A model generated the notes under the pieces. That model made no database searches and was not told the DNA's origin. It saw only the letters and a program-made list of their open reading frames with translations. From Arthrobacter globiformis (lineage in GTDB: Bacteria; Actinomycetota; Actinomycetes; Actinomycetales; Micrococcaceae), in NCBI RefSeq assembly GCF_030818015.1, contig NZ_JAUSZX010000001.1, positions 3,162,001 through 3,226,000 on the forward strand: a stretch of 64,000 nucleotides of DNA. Direction: 5' to 3'. Below are positions 46,631-54,450 of the stretch, piece by piece. Within the stretch, counting starts at the first letter, position 1, and every line of letters starts with the position of its first letter. The translations under genes were made by a program, and so were the position numbers.

Positions 46631-47221
46631 TCAGGCCGGGGCTCCCACGAAGCACTTCCCGTTCGACAGCGCCGGCAGCACGGTCACCGTCACCTTTCCC
46701 TCACGGATCTGGCCGATCACACATTCCTTTGCCTGGACCGCCGCCGCTTCCATGGAATCCACCTCGAGTCCGGTGGGCGTGCGCCCCGCCGAGACCTCCA
46801 GGCTCCGCGCCGGAACGCCAGCCGCCGTGAGCGCCGCCGTGATGTCCGCCGTGGCCGGCTTGGGGTTGGCTGCGACAACGCTTCCCAGGACGTCAGTCAT
46901 GGTCCGCTGCAGCGCCGCCGTGGCCCCGGCGGCGGCAGGCGCTTTGGTGGCCGCCGCAGATGCCGACGGTTTTGCCGACGCTGAGGCTGAGGCTGCCGCC
47001 GCCGCTGCCGTGGCAGTCTGCGTGGCCGCCTTTTCTCCGGCGGCCTGTCCTTCCGCCGTCTGGTTCACGGTCGCCTGATCCCATGGAACGGTGCAGGCGG
47101 CGGGCGCCGAGAGCAATACAGCCGCCAAAGCGAGCCGGCCTGTAACCCTCTTGGCATTTCGCCGGGCACTAGTTGCCTTGCCGCGGATTGCCTTGTTCCG
47201 CTGGGGTGTCATCGCTCGCAT
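46631..47221 (-). CDS. Putative lipoprotein with C-terminal cysteine pair
   Basis: The roughly 196-residue product has a basic N terminus, a hydrophobic signal (LALAAVLLSAPAAC) with a lipobox-like end at Cys about residue 44, an Ala/Ser/Lys-rich linker and a C-terminal domain of about 95 residues. That domain contains two cysteines (KECVIGQ and GKCFVG) that could form a disulfide. It is likely anchored outside the cytoplasm. I cannot assign a function. The ATG at 47221 fits better than the longer frame, which adds a non-signal-like leader. Confidence 0.72.
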   Translation of the reverse strand: MRAMTPQRNKAIRGKATSARRNAKRVTGRLALAAVLLSAPAACTVPWDQATVNQTAEGQAAGEKAATQTATAAAAAASASASAKPSASAAATKAPAAAGATAALQRTMTDVLGSVVAANPKPATADITAALTAAGVPARSLEVSAGRTPTGLEVDSMEAAAVQAKECVIGQIREGKVTVTVLPALSNGKCFVGAPA

Positions 47222-47281
47222 CACGCTGCCATTCTGCCATGCGGCACCGCCAGGGGGTGCGGTGCCGCACGCCACCGGCGT

Positions 47282-47851
47282 TCAGGCAGCCGCTCCGGTG
47301 AGTTCGCCCGTTTCCGCATCGAGCTGCGACTCGTCGCCGGTGTCGTCCACGAAGATGCCTGCTGCGGCCGGGTCTTCATCGGATTCGTCATCTTCCTCCC
47401 GGTCCTCGTCGGCTCCGTCTTCGCCCACAGCCGAGGACCCGGAGGCGCTGCGGTCGCCGTTTGCGGGACCAAATGCGTCAGCGGCCTGTGGGCTACCGGA
47501 ATTGCGGATGAAGTTGGCGGTGCCATACTTGAGGTCGTGGCCCACGGCATCCGCGTCGATCTCGGCCTCATGGTGGATGCGCCCGTCCTTCTCCCAGCTG
47601 CGCAATTTCAGCTTGCCCACGACGACGATGCGCTGACCTTTCTTGATGCTGCATCCCATGTTCCCGGCCAGCTGGCGGTACCCCTGGACGGTGAACCAGT
47701 TGATGTTGCCGTCTACCCAGGCGTTCGCGGTGCGGTCGTACCGCCGCTCGGTGGAACCGATGCGGAATGAGGCGGTGGGAACGCCCCCGGGAGTTGTTGA
47801 ACTGCGGATCTCCGTGGCAACGAAGCCGCGGATCGTAACGGTGTCGGTCAT
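47282..47851 (-). CDS. ssb: Single-stranded DNA-binding protein
   Basis: The 189-residue protein has the OB-fold core (VTIRGFVATEIRSS, FRIGSTERRYDR, WFTVQGYRQLAGNM, KKGQRIVVVGKLKLRSWEKDGR) and a long acidic C-terminal region. The last residues do not form the canonical DDDIPF tip, so this is probably a second, non-essential SSB rather than the replication SSB. AGGAC precedes the ATG. It lies 210 bp left of the tRNA-Arg that carries the integrated element. Confidence 0.9.
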   Translation of the reverse strand: MTDTVTIRGFVATEIRSSTTPGGVPTASFRIGSTERRYDRTANAWVDGNINWFTVQGYRQLAGNMGCSIKKGQRIVVVGKLKLRSWEKDGRIHHEAEIDADAVGHDLKYGTANFIRNSGSPQAADAFGPANGDRSASGSSAVGEDGADEDREEDDESDEDPAAAGIFVDDTGDESQLDAETGELTGAAA

Positions 47852-48060
47852 GTTGGTGTCCTGTCTCGAATTGTCGTGCCCCTTGCAGGCATTCCAAGCA
47901 TCAACCGGCAGCAGGGGGACCGCGAGAGTCGAAGTTCCGTATGTGGAAAACAAGCTTGGGAGGCGGGTAACGGAAGGATGAAACAGCCACGCGCCTGACG
48001 CTGACAGCACGCAAGTCAATGTAGACTTTTTAGGCGCCAGCAATGTGCCGGAAAGCCATT

Positions 48061-48133
48061 GCCCCAGTAGCTCAGGGGATAGAGCAGCGGCCTTCTAATC
48101 CGCCGGTCGGGGGTTCGATTCCCTCCTGGGGCA
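48061..48133 (+). tRNA. tRNA-Arg(TCT), integration target
   Basis: The cloverleaf has acceptor GCCCCAG/CTGGGGC, anticodon loop CTTCTAA (anticodon TCT) and discriminator A. Its 3' part from the anticodon loop to just past the end is repeated perfectly at 52526-52566, which marks it as the attachment site of the element to its right. Confidence 0.95.
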
Positions 48134-48135
48134 CA
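48095..48135. repeat. attL: left 41-bp attachment repeat
   Basis: This direct repeat spans the 3' half of tRNA-Arg. It is identical over 41 bp to 52526-52566 and differs on both flanks, so these are the exact edges of the shared core. Confidence 0.92.
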
Positions 48136-48138
48136 CGA

Positions 48139-48190
48139 AAAGCGGCTCTGACCTGCGGAAACGCCGATCAGGGCCGCTTTATTTTTTTAG
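48139..48190 (+). terminator. Terminator now serving tRNA-Arg, brought by the element
   Basis: The stem AAAGCGGC/GCCGCTTT with an inner CTGA/TCAG pairing is followed by TTTATTTTTTT. It lies just inside attL, so it belongs to the element; the host's own terminator was pushed beyond attR. Confidence 0.8.
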
Positions 48191-48418
48191 CTGAGAACTG
48201 GGCAATCCACCGATTACCCACCGGAATCGACTTGCCCAACGCCGACATCCGATACAGGCGGAGAATGGCTATCTGCCGATCTGAGTCATCGGTCTCCACT
48301 ACCTTGCCAACCCACTTGAGCCGCAGGTAGTACATCAGCACGTTGAACTTGGACGTCCACCCGTGACCGTCCAGAAATCCCAAGTGGATGCTGCTGCGCT
48401 GGCAGCCTCGGCAACCAT
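48168..48418 (-). pseudogene. Small unknown gene after the integrase, probably frameshifted
   Basis: The integrase stop TGA overlaps an ATG (TGATG) that has GGGGAGGGG 7 nt upstream. From this ATG the frame reads MVAEAASAAASTWDFWTVTG and then stops. Adding one G at the GGG run near 48360-48362 (minus strand) moves it into the frame GWTSKFNVLMYYLRLKWVGK, which continues to 48168. The repaired product would have about 83 residues. It has no domain I know; translational coupling to the integrase suggests an accessory role. The repair is my inference. Confidence 0.45.
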
Positions 48419-49515
48419 CAAAGAGCCCCTCCCCCAAAGGCCTGCAGCAGCGCAGTCATGTCCGTGGCCTGGTGCGTCTTCTGGACGTAATGCCGGCTTG
48501 TGATCTGCTCATTCGAGTGGCCTAGTTGCGCCGATGCCGAGGCCATTCCCTCGGCATTGGCCAGGAGCGTGCCGACTGATTTGCGGAACGTGTGCGGAGT
48601 GACCCACTGGAACCCGATGTCATCTCGGGCGGACCGCCACTGCTTGCGGAAGTTGCCAGGCTCACGCAAGGTGCCCGTAGACGAGAGGAAGACCACGTCC
48701 CATGGATTCGCTTCAAGCTGCTGGACTTGGCGGCGCATGAGCATCTCCACCGCGAAAGGCGGCAGGAAGTACCTTTGCCGGGAGTTGGTGGAGTTGGGGT
48801 GCTCCTGGATATCATCCCCTCTCCCGGCACATAGATGACCGTTCCCGTGACGGTGAGCGTGGCCCGCTCGGCCTTTAGGTCAACATCCTTCCACCTGAGC
48901 GCCAAAGCCTCCCCAATCCGGGCGCCGGTGGCAAGCATGACATCGACGACATGAAGCAGGTCGCTCGGGCGCTTTCGGCCGCGGGGGACTAGAGTCGAGT
49001 TGCCATTGGTACAGGCCGGCCCGCAGCGCGGCCGCCTCTTCAACGGTCAGCGCCCGCACCTCGTTCCGGTTCACAGGGACTTTGGTGACGTCGCGAAGTG
49101 GATTGGATTCGATGGCCCCATGGCGTGCCGCCAGGCCCAACATGGCCGACAGGACGGTCTTGGCCAGCTTCGCAGATCCGTTTCCGTGCTGGGTCCTCGT
49201 CGCCTTGAGGAACCGATCCAGGCGCGACACCGTCGCCTCCCTGATCGCGAGGCCACCGACCCCTGGACAAACGTACGAATCCAGGACTTCCCGATAGCGT
49301 CGCTGCGTGTTGATGGGGCGATCCTGGTCCTTAAACTCAACCCACCAGACCTCCGCCAACCTATTCATTCGTGTGTCCGCCGTGATGTCCTCACCGGCCG
49401 GCATCGCCCGCTCCTTCAACGCTGAAATCAAAGCCTGCTCCGCCTTGGAGCCCCGGTCATTCTTCGACTTGGCGATCGCCCGCGCCTCGACCTTGCGAGT
49501 CACTCCATCAAAATC
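48418..49515 (-). pseudogene. Tyrosine-family integrase with frameshifts, lacking its own N terminus
   Basis: Three frames join into one integrase. The core-binding part reads from DGVTRKVEARA through NTQRRYREVLDSYVCPGVGG to EVRALTVEEAAALR. The catalytic part continues as PSDLLHVVDVMLATGARIGEALALRW (first Arg in GARIGE) and EMLMRRQVQQLEANPWDVV, then VTPHTFRKSVGTLL (HxxR box), LGHSNEQITSRHYV (His and Tyr nucleophile) and GGGAL. Frame breaks are one extra C at the minus-strand C5 run 48983-48987 and one missing G at the G4 run 48816-48819. All five catalytic residues survive. There is no start codon; at the left of DGVT it is fused to another integrase fragment. Confidence 0.85.
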
Positions 49516-49955
49516 CCTGGATGTTCGCCTTGGTTTTGCGCGAGAGCGGCTGCCCGGTGGGCTGGTTGGCGCGGGACTGGGCCACGGGCCCATCCATCCA
49601 CAGGATTGCAGCTTCCCGGTCCACGCGGTCCACCGGTGTCTTGCCGAGGTCACTGGGGGCGATGTGGTTGGCCAGCTGCCGCCGGTATTTGCTGACGGTG
49701 CCTGGCTGGGGGCTTGCGGAGCTGGTTGATGTGGTCCTCGACGACCTCTGCCACGGTCGGCGCGGTGGAGTCCTTGCGGACCTTCGCTTTGGCTGCGAGC
49801 TTGAAGCTGTTGCCGTTCGAGTCGAGGAAGTCCTCGAGCTCCTGCGCCTTCTGCTTGTCATCGAACGTGCGGGATTTCAGGCCGGCCTCAGGATCACGCC
49901 AGGTCACTGTGTGGGACGCGCCCTTCTTCGTCTCCCGGGTCCGGATGCTAGCCAC
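49508..49955 (-). pseudogene. N-terminal half of a second tyrosine integrase, frameshifted
   Basis: The GTG start gives MASIRTRETKKGASHTVTW, an AP2-like arm domain, then a SAM-like core-binding domain (VAEVVEDHINQLRKP, and in the next frame QPGTVSKYRRQLANHIAP and KTPVDRVDREAAILWM). One extra C at the C5 run 49708-49712 breaks the frame. Coding sense stops at NIQGF, where the sequence runs directly into the middle of the other integrase (from DGVTRK). The catalytic half is missing. Confidence 0.8.
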
Positions 49956-50241
49956 GGGTCCACTCCTGCTGGTAGTCCGGGTGGCTGGCGTAGACGGCGG
50001 CCAGGGCCTTGAGGATCGCGTCCGCTGTTCCTAGGTCCTCACCGCCCGACTCGGCGCTAAGCTGGGCGTCCATCTGTTCCACGTCGTCCGCTAGGGCGAT
50101 GATTTTTCGCTTGGCCTCACACTCAGCGAAAACACGTAGGTCAGCCTTTGCTTCGGTCATGGCGAGCCCTTCAAGGTCACGCCGCGCTTCTGCCTCATCC
50201 TCGGCGATGCGTGCTTCGAGGAACTCGACGATGCTAGCCAC
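49948..50241 (-). CDS. DUF6221-type small protein, copy 1
   Basis: The 97-residue product begins MASIVEFLEARIAEDEAEAR and ends with YASHPDYQQEW, features of the DUF6221 family common in actinobacteria and their phages; its function is unknown. It is acidic and helical, with AECEAKRKI in the middle. GGAGG lies 6 nt before the GTG start. It overlaps the integrase start by 8 bp and the gene upstream by 8 bp, so the three form one coupled operon. It is the best-preserved gene on this strand of the element. Confidence 0.75.
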   Translation of the reverse strand: MASIVEFLEARIAEDEAEARRDLEGLAMTEAKADLRVFAECEAKRKIIALADDVEQMDAQLSAESGGEDLGTADAILKALAAVYASHPDYQQEWTRG

Positions 50242-50575
50242 GGGGATCCTCCAACTCCGAAATGACAGCAGCGATGGTCGGGCACGGAGCCGCCTTGTTG
50301 CAGTGCGTGCAGTAGCGCTCCTGACGGTCGGCGCGGGGAAACCCGACCCATCTCTGCCCATCTGAATTGTGTAGCTCCAGTACGGCGTCAAGCGCGGCGA
50401 CGAGACACAGCGTGTCCTCGGCCATCTCAATCACAATGGACTCTGTCGCATCCATCGCGCCGTACTGGTCTGCAACGAGCGTCGCATCAGACCGGATCTG
50501 ATTCAGCTTGCTCATGCTCGCGTCACGCTCACCAGCGTGCTCGCCTTGTCCCGTTCTGTCCTGTGGCTGTTCCAT
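50234..50575 (-). CDS. Small unknown protein with a Cys/His cluster
   Basis: No family recognised. The 113-residue product starts at an ATG with AGGGGA 5 nt upstream. A helical middle (MDATESIVIEMAEDTLCLVAALDAVLELH) is followed by RYCTHCNKAAPCP, where three cysteines and one histidine could hold a zinc ion. Its stop overlaps the DUF6221 start. It belongs to the element. Confidence 0.6.
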   Translation of the reverse strand: MEQPQDRTGQGEHAGERDASMSKLNQIRSDATLVADQYGAMDATESIVIEMAEDTLCLVAALDAVLELHNSDGQRWVGFPRADRQERYCTHCNKAAPCPTIAAVISELEDPRG

Positions 50576-50687
50576 GCTTGTCCCCTAGCTGTGCCGTTTT
50601 TCGCCAACAAAATAGCCGTTCTCGCCAACAGGCAAAAAGAAAAGCCCTAGATCACTGGGATCCAGGAAATTCCGGCGGCGGTCGTGG

Positions 50688-50997
50688 TCATAAATGGCCA
50701 CGATCGCACCGGAGCGGGACGTTAGCAAGCATCTGCCGTTTGGCCACCCATTCAGCAAGGATCCTGCCCCCGGTTGAACTGGGCGATGTAAAGCCGGTCT
50801 TCGGGCTTGCAGGCGAGGTACCCGGGTGCGTGGTCTGCGTATGCGTATGCGTCAAGTACAGCCTGTTCGTTCGCGGAGTAGAGCGCTGACGCGGGCGTTC
50901 CTGCTTCCCCGAACCATTCCCAGGGCGCAGGGGACGCTGCTTGGGCGACGGCTTCGTCTTCGCTGATTCGGGCTTCCAGGAAACCAATTATGTCCAC
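50688..50997 (-). pseudogene. DUF6221-type protein, copy 2, frameshifted
   Basis: The frame from GTG 50997 reads MDIIGFLEARISEDEAVAQ and YIAQFNRG, then a stop. Removing one C from the plus-strand C5 run 50767-50771 joins it to GRILAEWVAKRQMLANV, which matches the continuation expected for DUF6221 proteins. It shares FLEARI(A/S)EDEA with copy 1. As written, the product is cut at 81 residues. Confidence 0.7.
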
Positions 50998-51362
50998 GCT
51001 TCATCCTGCCACCCAGTTGCGGGGACCAGAAAGGACAAAGCGACGTGGGCCGAGCCAGAGGGCGACCCGTTCCGTTGGTAGTCAATGAATAGGGTAGCGG
51101 TGGCCCGCTCATTCCCCCAGACAGGAGCGGGCCACCTACCGAGGCCGTAGATTACATCGAGACCCCCTTACGGCAGCGGTAAACGGATGATACGACGGTC
51201 AAATGAAAAACGGATGGCGAATGGCTGCAGGCTTATAAAGTTGTGTGAATAATAGGAGGTTGTTAGCGTTATCAGTGGCAGCCTCCGCATTCCCCCCATG
51301 TGTGGAGGCTGCTTCTTTGGTTTTCAATCGGGGGCCCTGTCACAAACGCTGCGATCTAGCCC
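50998..51362. other. Control region of the element
   Basis: This gene-free stretch separates the minus-strand integrase operon from the plus-strand regulator genes, so it should hold both promoters. A 12-bp hairpin (GGTGGCCCGCTC arms) lies at 51099-51136. ACGGATG occurs twice near 51183-51222. At 51278-51312 a 9-bp stem GCAGCCTCC/GGAGGCTGC followed by TTCTTTGGTTTTC forms a terminator on the plus strand, with no gene in front of it. Before that stem AGGAGG appears without a convincing coding frame. Confidence 0.5.
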
Positions 51363-51650
51363 ATGGAAGACGAGGTCTTCACCGTCAAGGAAGTGGCGGA
51401 GATGCTCAAGGTGTCGACGAGCACCATCTATGCTCGCGTCTCGGACTGGCCGCACATCAGGATCACACCGACCGACATCCGGTTCAGCCGTGAAGACATT
51501 GAAGAGATCAAGGCGATGCCGCGCAAGACGCCCGTAGGTCCGCCTGCTATGCGGGCAAGGAGCACACGGATCGGGACGGAGAGGCAGAAGGCCAGGAACC
51601 GGGCGTACAACCTCAGGAACGGCCTCAAAGAGCCACCGGCACCCCGCTAA
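51363..51650 (+). CDS. Excisionase-like helix-turn-helix protein 1
   Basis: The 95-residue protein starts MEDEVFTVKEVAEMLKVST, an HTH_17/MerR-like helix-turn-helix as in Xis proteins and small regulators, followed by the wing (ITPTDIRFSREDIEEIKAM) and a basic tail (RIGTERQKARNRAYNLR). It probably binds att or promoter DNA of the element. A plus-strand stem-loop terminator lies just upstream and could attenuate it. Confidence 0.78.
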   Translation: MEDEVFTVKEVAEMLKVSTSTIYARVSDWPHIRITPTDIRFSREDIEEIKAMPRKTPVGPPAMRARSTRIGTERQKARNRAYNLRNGLKEPPAPR

Positions 51651-52080
51651 GAAGTGGTGGCCCGCCCCGATTGGGGACAGGGCGGGCCACCACCGGAGCC
51701 GCAGAAGGCGTGTAGCGGCGCCGGCTCACAGGACTATACGCCGCTCAAATCAAGGAAACCTCAAGTTTTCCGCAGCAAGAAGCGCCCGCCAGTCGTAAGC
51801 CCAGAGGGGGCTTCTCAGTTCTCAGCGGAGGCTTAGGCTTTCCGGCCGGCAAAGTCCGCAGGAGGTCCACAAACGGCCATCCTGACCAACTGCGCTCAAC
51901 GACAAAAACCCCCGGAATGTCGCGGGATTCAGCCGCACATCCGATCCGGCACATTCCGTAAACCATCGCGGTAGACACGTTGAGCCTTTACGGCAACATC
52001 TGCTGCAGTGACCATAGGGGCATCATCCATCCGTTGAGCATACGTACCAAGCGTCGACTTCGTGGCCTAGCATCGGCGGC
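51651..52080. other. Gene-free stretch between the two HTH genes
   Basis: A perfect 13-bp inverted repeat (TGGTGGCCCGCCC, 12-nt loop) at 51655-51692 follows the first HTH gene and may terminate it; its stem shares GGTGGCCCGC with the hairpin at 51099. The remainder shows no reliable gene. TAGCAT at 52068-52073, 7 nt before the next start, may be the -10 of a leaderless transcript. Confidence 0.5.
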
Positions 52081-52440
52081 ATGAACGTGGATCCGGCGCC
52101 CATTGAAAAGTCCAAGCTCGCTTACAACCTAGAAGAGGCAGCCACAGCCACCGGCTATACGGTGAGCACGCTTCGCATCGCCATACGTCGCCACGACCTC
52201 TTAGCCCGATACGCGAACACCAAGCCAATCATTCTGGCCGATGAACTCCAGGACTGGCTTAGATCTCTTCCTACCGAGCCTAAAGGCGGACACCGGCCTC
52301 TCAGCAAGTGTGCGGAAGAGGTGGAAGGATGGCCAGGGCAACCAGAAGAACGTCAGCGCACGTCTCTAGCGCCGGCGAAAGCACTGTTCCGGACACCCGA
52401 AGAAGTCGCCCCCGAACTCGGCATCAATGACAAATCTTGA
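52081..52440 (+). CDS. Excisionase-like helix-turn-helix protein 2
   Basis: The 119-residue protein has an N-terminal helix-turn-helix (LAYNLEEAATATGYTVSTLR, then PIILADELQDWLRSLP), the arrangement of HTH_17 excisionase-type domains, and a hydrophilic C terminus without a known domain. It has no ribosome-binding site and may be leaderless. It is the last gene before attR, a common place for xis-like genes. Confidence 0.7.
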   Translation: MNVDPAPIEKSKLAYNLEEAATATGYTVSTLRIAIRRHDLLARYANTKPIILADELQDWLRSLPTEPKGGHRPLSKCAEEVEGWPGQPEERQRTSLAPAKALFRTPEEVAPELGINDKS

Positions 52441-52525
52441 AATGCAACGATCGCGCACACCGGCTTGTTTCGCGGAATCTCGAGACTGTTGGGCGAGGAT
52501 GAATGATGACGAAAAGCAGCATCCC

Positions 52526-52566
52526 CTAATCCGCCGGTCGGGGGTTCGATTCCCTCCTGGGGCACA
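52526..52566. repeat. attR: right 41-bp attachment repeat
   Basis: Perfect copy of the tRNA-Arg 3' segment at 48095-48135. It lacks the 5' half of the tRNA, so it is not a functional tRNA gene. Confidence 0.92.
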
Positions 52567-52573
52567 GTGTGGT

Positions 52574-52648
52574 GAGTCGAGACATCCTTTCCGGATGAGT
52601 CGGGTCATCAGTTACACCCCGGTCTTCGGACCGGGGTGTTTTTCTTTG
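52574..52648 (+). terminator. Displaced host terminator with UUCG loop (copy A)
   Basis: An 11-bp stem ACACCCCGGTC closed by a cUUCGg tetraloop (52613-52639) is followed by TTTTTCTTT. It lies 48 bp right of attR, so it is the likely original terminator of tRNA-Arg. A diverged copy occurs at 54247-54318. Confidence 0.8.
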
Positions 52649-52999
52649 TCTGGGCTGGTAGTCCGTGCAGGGAGGCCCTCGGGCGTCTCTTCGGTTCGGG
52701 ACGGATAAGGTCTGCGGTTGCAGGGTCCGGCGGATCGTGGACGTCGAGGGCGAGGGCGGCGTCGTCAGTGCGGTGGGGATTGCTGAGAGGCCGTTTCAAT
52801 CGCGGTTCCACGGCGGCGAGGCCTCCCGTTCGCAGGACAGTGTGGGTATACGAGGTCGCCTGGCTGCAGGGCGTCAGCCCAGAGGAGCTTGGCGTAGATC
52901 CTGACGATGTCGTTGGGGTCCTTGCCGATGATGCCTTCGGCGACCTCCTTGGCTTAACGTTGATGGTGCTCGTGGGTCGGGGATGCTTGGCGGTGGCAT
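52649..52999. other. Stretch without a supported gene
   Basis: No convincing gene. On the minus strand a frame with no start codon (about 52955 to 52765) reads KEVAEGIIGKDPNDIVRIYA and then WADALQPGDLVYP, which is protein-like and could be a remnant, but I recognise no family. Confidence 0.35.
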
Positions 53000-54058
53000 T
53001 TACTTTGGTGCGGGACGCGTACCTGAGTCTTTGCTCGATCCCGACGTTGGAACGAAGTTCCAGTCGAAAGACCCATTGTCTCGGAGTGTCATCCGAAGGA
53101 AGCCGTGAGTGTCGTTGAACCGCTTCACGATGTATGACGGATTGCTGATGAAGGAGCGGAGGCCGATACCTCCCGTGGAAACCTGGAACGCTGTGATCCC
53201 GTCACTGACGCACTGGTCAGCGTTGTTCACGGGACATGAGCGTTCGTAGTTGTGTTGTGACCCTGAGAGGGTGAACCGCACCCGGTGCTTCCACATCACG
53301 TCGATCCACGGTTTGAGTTCAGCGGACCGCCCGTGTTCGTCGGTGTCTGACGTGAAGTACGGGTCGTGGTGCACCACCGCCAGATGCTTACCTGCCGCCT
53401 GCGCGGCAGCGAGGTCCTTGTCCAGCCACGTCGTCAGCTTCTTGGCCTGTGCCGGGTTGTACCGCCAGTGCGCGGACGACAGGAAGGCGAAGTGCCATTT
53501 CCCGAAGTCCTTCGAGTACGGGGCCCCGTTCCCGATGAATCCGCGCTGCTGGTTGATCGCAGCCTTCGCGGGGGCACCGGGGCATTGGCCGTTCATGAAG
53601 TTGTCGAGGTCTTCGTTCCGTCCGGGTTGCCAGTCATGGTTGGGTGCGGACACCCAGTACAACTTGGGTTTCGTGCCACCCCAAAGCTTCGTCCAGTAGT
53701 TTACGTAGTCGGCGCAGTACCCGGTGTCGTACTGGAAGTCCCCGAGCCCCAAGAACGCGTCAATCTGGTTGGTCCGCACGAGCCTGGTGATCGCCGCACC
53801 GTTGCGCCCGGACGCGCTATTCGGTGACGATGTCTTCTCGCCGTTCATGTCTCCCACAGCAGCGATCCTCACCTCACCCGCACGTGCCGGGGTCTCGCCG
53901 GGTGACTCTGGGGATGGCGATGGCGCCGCGGCAGTCGTGGTTGGTTCCGGCGCCTGCTCTGCGGTGTTCCCACCGCCGGCGGCGAGGGACGCGGCCACGA
54001 GACCAGCGACGCCGAGGAGAACAACGGACGTTCCAGCGATAACACGATTGCGGCGCAT
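53000..54058 (-). CDS. Secreted metallophosphoesterase with atypical metal site
   Basis: The start giving MRRNRVIAGTSVVLLG has GGGAGG about 10 nt upstream. The roughly 352-residue protein has a signal peptide or N-terminal anchor (about 1-27), a Pro/Thr/Ser linker and a calcineurin-like domain: AAVGDMNG, LGLGDFQYDTG, SAPNHDW, LAVVHHDPYF and SGSQHNYERSC. In most relatives the last motif is G-H-x-H; here it is G-S-Q-H, so one metal-ligand histidine is lost, and the GNH(D/E) motif reads PNHD. Activity may be changed. It lies between two copies of a terminator-like repeat right of attR, so it may be acquired cargo. Confidence 0.82.
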   Translation of the reverse strand: MRRNRVIAGTSVVLLGVAGLVAASLAAGGGNTAEQAPEPTTTAAAPSPSPESPGETPARAGEVRIAAVGDMNGEKTSSPNSASGRNGAAITRLVRTNQIDAFLGLGDFQYDTGYCADYVNYWTKLWGGTKPKLYWVSAPNHDWQPGRNEDLDNFMNGQCPGAPAKAAINQQRGFIGNGAPYSKDFGKWHFAFLSSAHWRYNPAQAKKLTTWLDKDLAAAQAAGKHLAVVHHDPYFTSDTDEHGRSAELKPWIDVMWKHRVRFTLSGSQHNYERSCPVNNADQCVSDGITAFQVSTGGIGLRSFISNPSYIVKRFNDTHGFLRMTLRDNGSFDWNFVPTSGSSKDSGTRPAPK

Positions 54059-54450
54059 TGGGGTGCGCCCTCCCTTCGTGAGGGTGTGTACTACTTGGGC
54101 AAATTGGGGGTACGCCCGGTATGCGTACTGTCGAGTGTAGAACAAAGCCCGCACAGGCTGTCGCATTGTTTTTCTACCAAGCAGTTATGCGACTTGCGGA
54201 AGAGACCCACGAAGCAGTGGGGGCCCTTCATAGGGTGCGTTGTGATGGGTCGGACATCCTATCGATGCACAGGGCCATCATGGACACCCCGGTCTTCGGA
54301 GCGGGGCGTTTTTCTTTGCCCGGCGGAAATTGCAAAGCATGCTTACTATTGCGGGCAGACTGTGCCTATGATCGGATTGGGCGCCGGTTATTTGCGGCGA
54401 TTCGCACAGGCTGGCCCAACTTGGACCGCCGTCGAGGAAGGAACACCCGC
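54059..54450. other. Gene-free stretch left of the LapA gene, with terminator copy B
   Basis: At 54247-54318 lies a diverged copy of the segment 52574-52648: GTCGGACATCC, then CACCCCGGTCTTCGG and GTTTTTCTTTG. The stem is less perfect but keeps the UUCG loop and T tract. The rest may hold the promoters of the two divergent genes. An open frame crosses this stretch into the LapA gene but is not protein-like here. Confidence 0.6.

What the first reader, a model, noticed from the sequence alone, without database searches (positions are those of the whole stretch)
48095..52566. Mini-element in tRNA-Arg looks like two related elements merged into one
Each functional part occurs twice: two integrase N-terminal regions, two DUF6221 genes that share FLEARI(A/S)EDEA, and two excisionase-like HTH genes. 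The two integrases are joined mid-gene. The simplest reading is that two related elements used the same tRNA-Arg site and then collapsed by deletion between them. With no replication, capsid or transfer genes, the parent may be a small satellite-like actinobacterial element, a class that is poorly described.
Basis: partly seen in the sequence, partly recalled or inferred. Interest (0 to 1): 0.75.

Follow-up and report, generated by a model that had tools for sequence, protein, structure and literature searches.

The report
Wrecked prophage patched with foreign phage DNA
This 4.4-kb stretch looks like the dead remains of one ordinary bacterial virus that had inserted into an arginine tRNA gene, with a 1.1-kb piece of a different bacterial virus stuck into the break where the middle was lost; it is a tidy example of genome decay rather than a new kind of element.

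Summary
In detail: a 41-bp direct repeat at tRNA-Arg(TCT), two integrase pieces joined mid-gene, two DUF6221 genes, two HTH ORFs. Both ends, DUF6221#2 and both HTH ORFs fit one parent, a tRNA-Arg prophage; its nearest relative found is a 37.3-kb prophage in Arthrobacter ipis IA7 with head, packaging and tail genes at the same tRNA and att. Window 49518-50666 is foreign: the 5' part of a second integrase, DUF6221#1 and a small ORF, ending 11 bp before the att core of a phage group that integrates in ssrA (tmRNA), not tRNA-Arg. So two unrelated phages contributed, but the segment order does not fit two tandem elements at one site, and a satellite parent is not supported: none of five window proteins matched five satellite-like elements. 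By the A. ipis yardstick about 32.7 kb gave way to 1.2 kb; the joins share 0-3 bp, the integrase fusion is out of frame, and join 1 was found in 1 of 206 genus genomes, this one. Side lead: satellite-like elements with their own tape measure at the same tRNA-Arg.

The parts
48061..48134 (+). tRNA-Arg (TCT), intact; integration target, restored by the element's left end
   Evidence: ARAGORN; the tRNA-plus-flank query 47950-48140 matched 146 of 150 genus genomes
48095..48135 (+). left att copy (41 bp, exact)
   Evidence: the 40/41-mer occurs twice at each of 4 related elements
48433..49517 (-). remains of the tRNA-Arg-type tyrosine integrase (int2), residues 31-392 of 394; two compensating indels and a stop inside
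   Evidence: 91% to G002 (A. ipis) over 186 residues
49517..49518 (.). join 1: int2 residue 31 to int1 residue 148, out of frame; at most about 2 shared bases (read by eye)
   Evidence: found in 1 of 206 genus genomes (own)
49518..49955 (-). 5' part (residues 1-148) of the ssrA-type phage integrase (int1), one frameshift
49951..50241 (-). DUF6221 gene no. 1, from the ssrA-type phage side
   Evidence: PF19730 3.5e-18; related gene next to the integrase in ChuckDuck and Judy
50234..50575 (-). 113-aa ORF, start region related to ArV2 gp30
50620..50666 (.). hairpin-like att-side flank that in phages and prophages leads to the ssrA att core 11 bp further on; the core is missing here
50664..50711 (.). 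tiny filler of about 46 bp: in G141, and partly in G138, this DNA lies just past the end of DUF6221 in the other orientation; no ORF of 60 aa or more with this start was listed there (joins 2 and 3)
50712..50997 (-). DUF6221 gene no. 2, C-terminal end lost at join 3, one frameshift; tRNA-Arg prophage side
   Evidence: intact 130-aa relative in G129
51363..51650 (+). HTH gene no. 1 (HTH_17), as at the right end of the A. ipis prophage
   Evidence: (85% to A. ipis)
52081..52440 (+). HTH gene no. 2, truncated copy of a longer gene; position as in A. ipis, nearest DNA relative in G098
   Evidence: (51% to A. ipis)
52423..52525 (.). right-end DNA, 79% to A. ipis over 52423-52565
52526..52566 (+). 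right att copy (41 bp, exact)

Best explanation
A temperate phage of the A. ipis IA7 type entered by site-specific recombination at tRNA-Arg(TCT), its attP restoring the tRNA. It then lost its interior (about 32.7 kb by the A. ipis yardstick: repressor, replication, packaging, head, tail and lysis genes). The break was closed not cleanly but with a 1149-bp piece of a different temperate phage, of the ssrA-integrating group, and with about 46 bp of inverted prophage DNA. The joins share 0-3 bp and join 1 lies at non-corresponding places of the two integrases, which fits end joining or template switching better than homologous or site-specific recombination. The product should be an immobile relic: the integrase fusion is out of frame, though both att copies are intact. 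Shown: relatives of each segment, the joins, the lost content. Inferred: the order of events and the joining mechanism.
For: Integrase 2 has relatives at 74-91% in G002, G100, G130 and G096, 4 of 4 beside tRNA-Arg(TCT) with a second copy of the 40/41-bp att. Its right end carries DUF6221, HTH#1 (85%), HTH#2 (51%) and the att end in the window's order. Window 49518-50666 matches phages Zucker, ChuckDuck and ArV2, with a left edge at 49518 in 18 of the 20 rows listed (40 records in all) and a right edge at 50666 in 9 of the 11 loci that match the flank. The phages continue into a core that equals this genome's own tmRNA 3' end at 21 of 21 (Zucker), 24 of 25 (ChuckDuck) and 22 of 22 bases (ArV2). 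Nine of nine genomic places with the flank, other than the window, have the ssrA core or tmRNA next to it. The own ssrA site shows no such prophage: homology to the distal flank of G041 (70%) resumes about 265 bp from the tmRNA. Join 1 is unique among 206 genus genomes.
Against: The A. ipis prophage is a relative, not the direct parent (83% nt in int2, 77-85% at the right end), and its own DUF6221 is damaged. Parts of the right end have nearer DNA relatives elsewhere: DUF6221#2 is 89% to a tRNA-Lys locus in G129 and the HTH#2 region 75% to G098, where no tRNA was found in the 14 kb fetched. Window 51653-51765 matches EvePickles and G129 but not A. ipis, and 51851-51892 matches A. ipis inverted. 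So the right end is itself mosaic, and A. ipis is the only one of the fetched loci with these parts in this order at the tRNA-Arg att. Only one genome carries the join, so the order of deletion and insertion cannot be dated. Joins sharing 0-3 bp are at chance level and prove no mechanism.
Confidence: 0.7

Rival explanations
1. The phage that integrated at tRNA-Arg already was a mosaic with two integrases (its own and an ssrA-type cassette with DUF6221#1). Later internal deletions, one between the two integrase genes, gave the present relic.
For: Two-integrase Arthrobacter phages exist: Zucker, ChuckDuck and Nandita records, and the QuinnAvery paper says that all but one of eight annotated cluster FF phages have two (PMC13097055, passages). 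In ChuckDuck both lie on the same strand, as in the window.
Against: In Zucker and Nandita the two integrases are on opposite strands; in ChuckDuck three genes lie between them, on the 5' side of the ssrA-type one, whereas the window has int2 on its 3' side. None of the four tRNA-Arg relatives has a long DNA match to the ssrA-type segment: G002 and G100 show 49 and 28 bp, G130 and G096 none.
Confidence: 0.2
2. One reading: two related elements in tandem at the same tRNA-Arg, collapsed by deletion between them.
For: Several parts occur twice; tandem occupation of a tRNA site is known in general (recalled).
Against: Both ends fit one parent type; the inserted piece carries an ssrA-type flank, not a tRNA-Arg att; no third att copy was found in 47000-54000.
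Confidence: 0.04
3. The relic derives from one of the 12-16-kb satellite-like elements that use the same integrase lineage and site.
For: The integrases of the three at tRNA-Arg are 87-92% identical to each other and to A. ipis, and 14-21 bp just inside the right att match the window.
Against: None of five window proteins matches any ORF of five such elements at E 1e-4, while HTH#1 and HTH#2 match A. ipis. The window's integrase is nearer to A. ipis (91%) than to G130 (79%), G100 (78%) or G096 (74%).
Confidence: 0.03
4. The chimera is an assembly artefact.
For: Two of the integrase frameshifts lie at homopolymer runs.
Against: The own genome holds no other long copy of the ssrA-type segment to mis-join (itself and one 48-bp match); of the right part there is one other match, 77% over about 300 bases. 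The genome is 3 contigs, 99.9% complete. The ends lie in their expected chromosomal context.
Confidence: 0.03

Closest known systems
tRNA-Arg(TCT) prophage of Arthrobacter ipis IA7 (G002)
   Same: Same tRNA, same 40-bp att, integrase 91% in the piece compared, same right-end order DUF6221, HTH#1, HTH#2, att
   Different: 37.25 kb with head, packaging, tail, lysis and replication genes; integrase ORF open; no long ssrA-type match
ssrA-integrating Arthrobacter phages (Zucker, ChuckDuck, ArV2)
   Same: Integrase 5' part and att-side flank, 78-87% DNA identity over the integrase part; related small upstream genes
   Different: Complete phages with an att core equal or nearly equal to the tmRNA end; the window keeps 1149 bp and no core
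Cluster FF Arthrobacter phages (QuinnAvery, Nandita)
   Same: Carry tRNA-Arg(TCT) at the lysogeny module and two tyrosine integrases
   Different: Whole tRNA copy at 93% identity; in Nandita only the tRNA matches the window at DNA level

Membership tests
Cryptic (defective) prophage | Bounded by direct att repeats at an integration site | tested here: met
   Exact 41-bp repeat at tRNA-Arg
Cryptic (defective) prophage | Derived from a complete prophage by gene order and homology | tested here: met
   Both ends colinear with the A. ipis prophage; parts of the right end have nearer relatives elsewhere
Cryptic (defective) prophage | Genes for virion and lysis lost | tested here: met
   Between the att copies only integrase pieces, DUF6221, HTH and a small ORF were recognised; the A. 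ipis interval holds the rest
Phage satellite (PICI or similar) | Shares a gene set with satellite-like relatives | tested here: not met
   None of five window proteins matches five satellite-like elements, (integrase aside)
Phage satellite (PICI or similar) | Mobilised by a helper | not testable with these tools
   needs an induction experiment
Tandem elements at one tRNA | Left end from one element, right end from another | tested here: not met
   Both ends fit one type
ssrA-integrating phage (for segment 49518-50666) | Integrase with att-side flank leading to a tmRNA core | tested here: inconclusive
   Flank met; the core and catalytic domain are lost, so site use cannot be read from this copy

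The most novel reading that the evidence does not exclude
The tRNA-Arg(TCT) site of Arthrobacter is an arena in which complete temperate phages and a family of 12-16-kb satellites, not seen in print in my searches, compete with nearly the same integrase and att. The satellites carry only one or two virion genes (a tape measure in four, one of them with a tail-completion gene besides; a minor-head-like gene in a fifth) and may redirect helper particles with them. The window is what is left of a prophage from that arena, caught recombining with a third phage.
Probability: 0.3. Interest if true: 0.6.

Novelty: new member of a known kind. Interest (0 to 1): 0.27.

Why it matters
It gives a base-resolved example of how a prophage decays: both ends are held (the left one restores the tRNA), the middle is lost, and the gap is filled with DNA of an unrelated phage. 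It also warns against reading duplicated parts as merged elements, since several of the duplicates here fit the normal content of one phage. The more interesting outcome is the comparison set, in which a full prophage and satellite-like elements share one integrase lineage and one att site.

Tried and rejected
Plasmids: 166 records; the 20 rows listed all match about 60-85 bases over the tRNA (query 157-243), not the element. DNA search of the second integrase region against phages: 24 records, the 20 listed at 65-74% over at most 25% of the query. With the A. ipis integrase as a protein, 562 records matched, all below 60%; the 12 listed are at 49-51%, so close relatives were seen only in genomes. 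A scan of viral contigs with a degenerate 21-mer across join 1 gave two hits that share only 23 bp with the window: chance. Homologous recombination between the two integrases was set aside because the join lies at residue 31 of one and 148 of the other. Site-specific joining at the ssrA core was considered because join 2 lies so near it, and set aside because the core is absent and the other side matches prophage DNA. A reading of the 46-bp filler as the start of a gene was dropped: no ORF of 60 aa or more with that start is listed in G141. A reading of HTH#2 as two fused genes was dropped: G098 has one ORF of 207 aa. Papers: listings; passages only of PMC13097055 and PMC10690885. No paper on tape-measure-carrying satellites of this kind or on this relic was seen in those listings of an open-access library; that is no proof of absence.
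Full report
WHAT IS THERE. The 41-bp repeat is exact, at 48095-48135 and 52526-52566. The first copy is the 3' part of an intact tRNA-Arg(TCT) at 48061-48134. A search of the own genome found these two places only. Between them lie, on the minus strand, two integrase pieces, DUF6221#1, a 113-aa ORF and DUF6221#2, and on the plus strand two HTH ORFs. So the parts list is right. Two corrections: the second integrase piece is nearly the whole protein without its first 30 residues (31-392 of 394), and HTH#2 is a truncated copy of a longer gene.

PARENT A: A tRNA-Arg PROPHAGE. A 257-aa ORF over integrase 2 was searched in 150 genus genomes; 18, the own one included, had a match at 1e-30. The four nearest others (G002 91%, G130 79%, G100 78%, G096 74%) lie beside tRNA-Arg(TCT), 4 of 4, each with a second copy of the 40/41-bp att. 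The next seven (66-70%) lie beside tRNA-Met, 7 of 7. In G002, which is Arthrobacter ipis IA7, the att copies are 37.25 kb apart. PHROGs matches among ten proteins scanned there include major head, portal, large terminase, head protease, DnaB helicase, tape measure and lysin. Its right end matches the window from DUF6221#2 to the att: 50712-50934 at 85%, 51031-51638 at 80%, 52423-52565 at 79%. HTH#1 is 85% and HTH#2 51% identical. Both ends of the window element, DUF6221#2 and both HTH ORFs thus fit one prophage type.

AGAINST A SIMPLE READING. Parts of the right end have nearer DNA relatives elsewhere: DUF6221#2 in G129 (89%, near tRNA-Lys) and the HTH#2 region in G098 (75% over 487 bp), where no tRNA was found in the 14 kb fetched. 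Window 51653-51765 matches EvePickles and G129, not A. ipis. The A. ipis DUF6221 is itself damaged. So the right end is mosaic; A. ipis is the only fetched locus with these parts in this order at this att.

PARENT B: AN ssrA PHAGE. Against 50,697 phage records the element had 40 matching records. Of the 20 rows listed, 18 begin at the same base, 49518. Zucker matches at 87%, ChuckDuck at 80% and ArV2 at 78% over the integrase part; of 11 loci that match the flank, 9 end at 50666, Zucker at 50647 and L035 at 50661. In phages and prophages this flank is hairpin-like and followed 11 bp later by a core that equals the 3' end of this genome's own tmRNA at 21 of 21, 24 of 25 and 22 of 22 bases in Zucker, ChuckDuck and ArV2. 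Nine genomic places other than the window match the flank: eight have the tmRNA gene next to it, and the ninth, in G088 about 50 kb from its tmRNA, has two ssrA cores and no tmRNA gene. The own tmRNA locus carries no such prophage: flank homology resumes about 265 bp away. The own genome has no other long copy of the segment.

THE JOINS. Shared bases were read by eye. Join 1 (49517/49518) links residue 31 of integrase 2 to residue 148 of integrase 1 in different frames, with at most about 2 shared bases. Join 2 (50666) links the flank to about 46 bp that in G141, and partly in G138, lie just past the end of DUF6221 in the other orientation; about 3 bases are shared. Join 3 (about 50710) leads into DUF6221#2, which loses its C-terminal end; about none is shared. 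On A. ipis coordinates the interval from the integrase break to the DUF6221 break is about 32.7 kb, and 1.2 kb stands in its place (worked out). Join 1 was found in 1 of 206 genus genomes with up to 3 mismatches, the own one.

WHY NOT TWO ELEMENTS IN TANDEM. A collapse between two tandem elements leaves one end of each. Here both ends are of type A and type B is internal. No third att copy was found, and the B piece brings the flank of an ssrA site. Repeated parts are weak evidence: the A. ipis right end has four ORFs with HTH_17 hits (E 2.3e-4 or better; two above the cut-off), and G129 has, near a tRNA-Lys, an integrase fragment and two DUF6221 genes, one intact and one broken, though that locus is itself damaged.

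WHY NOT A SATELLITE. But none of the five window proteins tested matches any ORF of these three or of two tRNA-Met elements, while the two HTH ORFs match A. ipis.

DECAY. Integrase 1 has one frameshift, integrase 2 two compensating ones with a stop between, DUF6221#2 one. Some lie at runs of five C or G and could be sequencing errors; the joins and truncations stand without them. The relic should be immobile by itself. Both att copies are intact, so excision by a related integrase from elsewhere is possible in principle (inference).

HOW IT MOST LIKELY AROSE. Integration of phage A; phage B DNA in the cell; a large deletion in A closed with fragments of B and of prophage DNA. Relatives of the segments and the joins are shown. 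The order and the end-joining or template-switching step are inferred. The main rival is that A already carried a B-type cassette; two-integrase Arthrobacter phages exist (PMC13097055, passages), and in ChuckDuck both integrases are on one strand.

FLANKS. The left flank continues at 90% into G141, and the right flank resumes at 54279 at 86%; G141 lacks the element and also the 388-aa ORF that follows it here and in A. ipis. So the site is empty in this near relative.

SIDE LEAD. Five att-bounded elements of the integrase-2 family (G100 15.9, G130 12.2, G096 13.1 kb at tRNA-Arg; G043 14.7, G124 14.4 kb at tRNA-Met) share parts of a core: integrase, repressor, HTH_17, replication initiator, a phrog_3678 protein, two unknown proteins; G130 shares least. 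Near the right end lies a tape measure of 1027-1110 aa in four and a minor-head-like protein in G124. G096 also has a tail-completion or connector gene. One G130 protein matches Terminase_7 in Pfam but a minor tail family in PHROGs. No large terminase, portal or major head match appeared among the proteins scanned (10 each of G100, G130 and G096, 8 of G043, 2 of G124 against PHROGs); other ORFs were not scanned against it. One core protein is in 6 of 204 genus genomes, not in G130, and in none of 50,697 phage records. The tape measure of G043 is 48-55% identical to those of Kukla, Faja, TripleJ, EvePickles and Hestia, the best of 973 matching records. The Streptomyces satellites of PMC10690885 (passages) differ: they encode capsid and packaging genes. 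Searches for satellites with tape measures showed no such family in their listings.

VERDICT. A cryptic prophage with captured foreign phage DNA: a new member of a known kind, well resolved, of modest interest.

Noticed in passing
L058 1960-17851, L059 2267-14468, L060 2471-15538, L126 544-15260, L128 218-14575: Five att-bounded 12-16-kb elements of the integrase-2 family share parts of a core and carry one or two virion-type genes (tape measure in four, minor-head-like in one, plus a tail-completion gene in L060), with no large terminase, portal or major head among the proteins scanned: candidate satellites.
   Followed up: partly
window 53000-54166: A 388-aa ORF just beyond the right att (no Pfam match; like a phosphoesterase by recall only) is present here and in A. 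ipis but has no match at this place in G141, G103, G106 and G110.
   Followed up: partly
window 52567-52660 and 54241-54318: A terminator-like sequence of about 80 bp occurs twice around that ORF (80% alike); two further matches of about 40 bp exist in the own genome, one abutting a tRNA-like stretch.
   Followed up: partly
L095 8490-11836: G129 has, near tRNA-Lys, an integrase fragment and two DUF6221 genes, one intact at 130 aa and one broken: perhaps another relic.
   Followed up: partly
L098 3321-8418: G041 has a small element of about 5 kb at ssrA with integrase-1 DNA and a second, 28-bp copy of the att core.
   Followed up: no
L139 3852-4056: G088 has two ssrA att cores about 180 bp apart, some 50 kb from its tmRNA, one of them with the att-side flank: perhaps the far end of its ssrA prophage or of two.
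   Followed up: no
G125:C5:333684-337518 and G127:C1:1716806-1727668: Two more genomes show att-end-like DNA about 3.8 and 10.8 kb from tRNA-Arg DNA; in G127 the satellite core protein lies between.
   Followed up: no
L060 3252-4181: The G096 integrase ORF is only 309 aa, against 395-427 in the other elements compared, so it may be broken.
   Followed up: no
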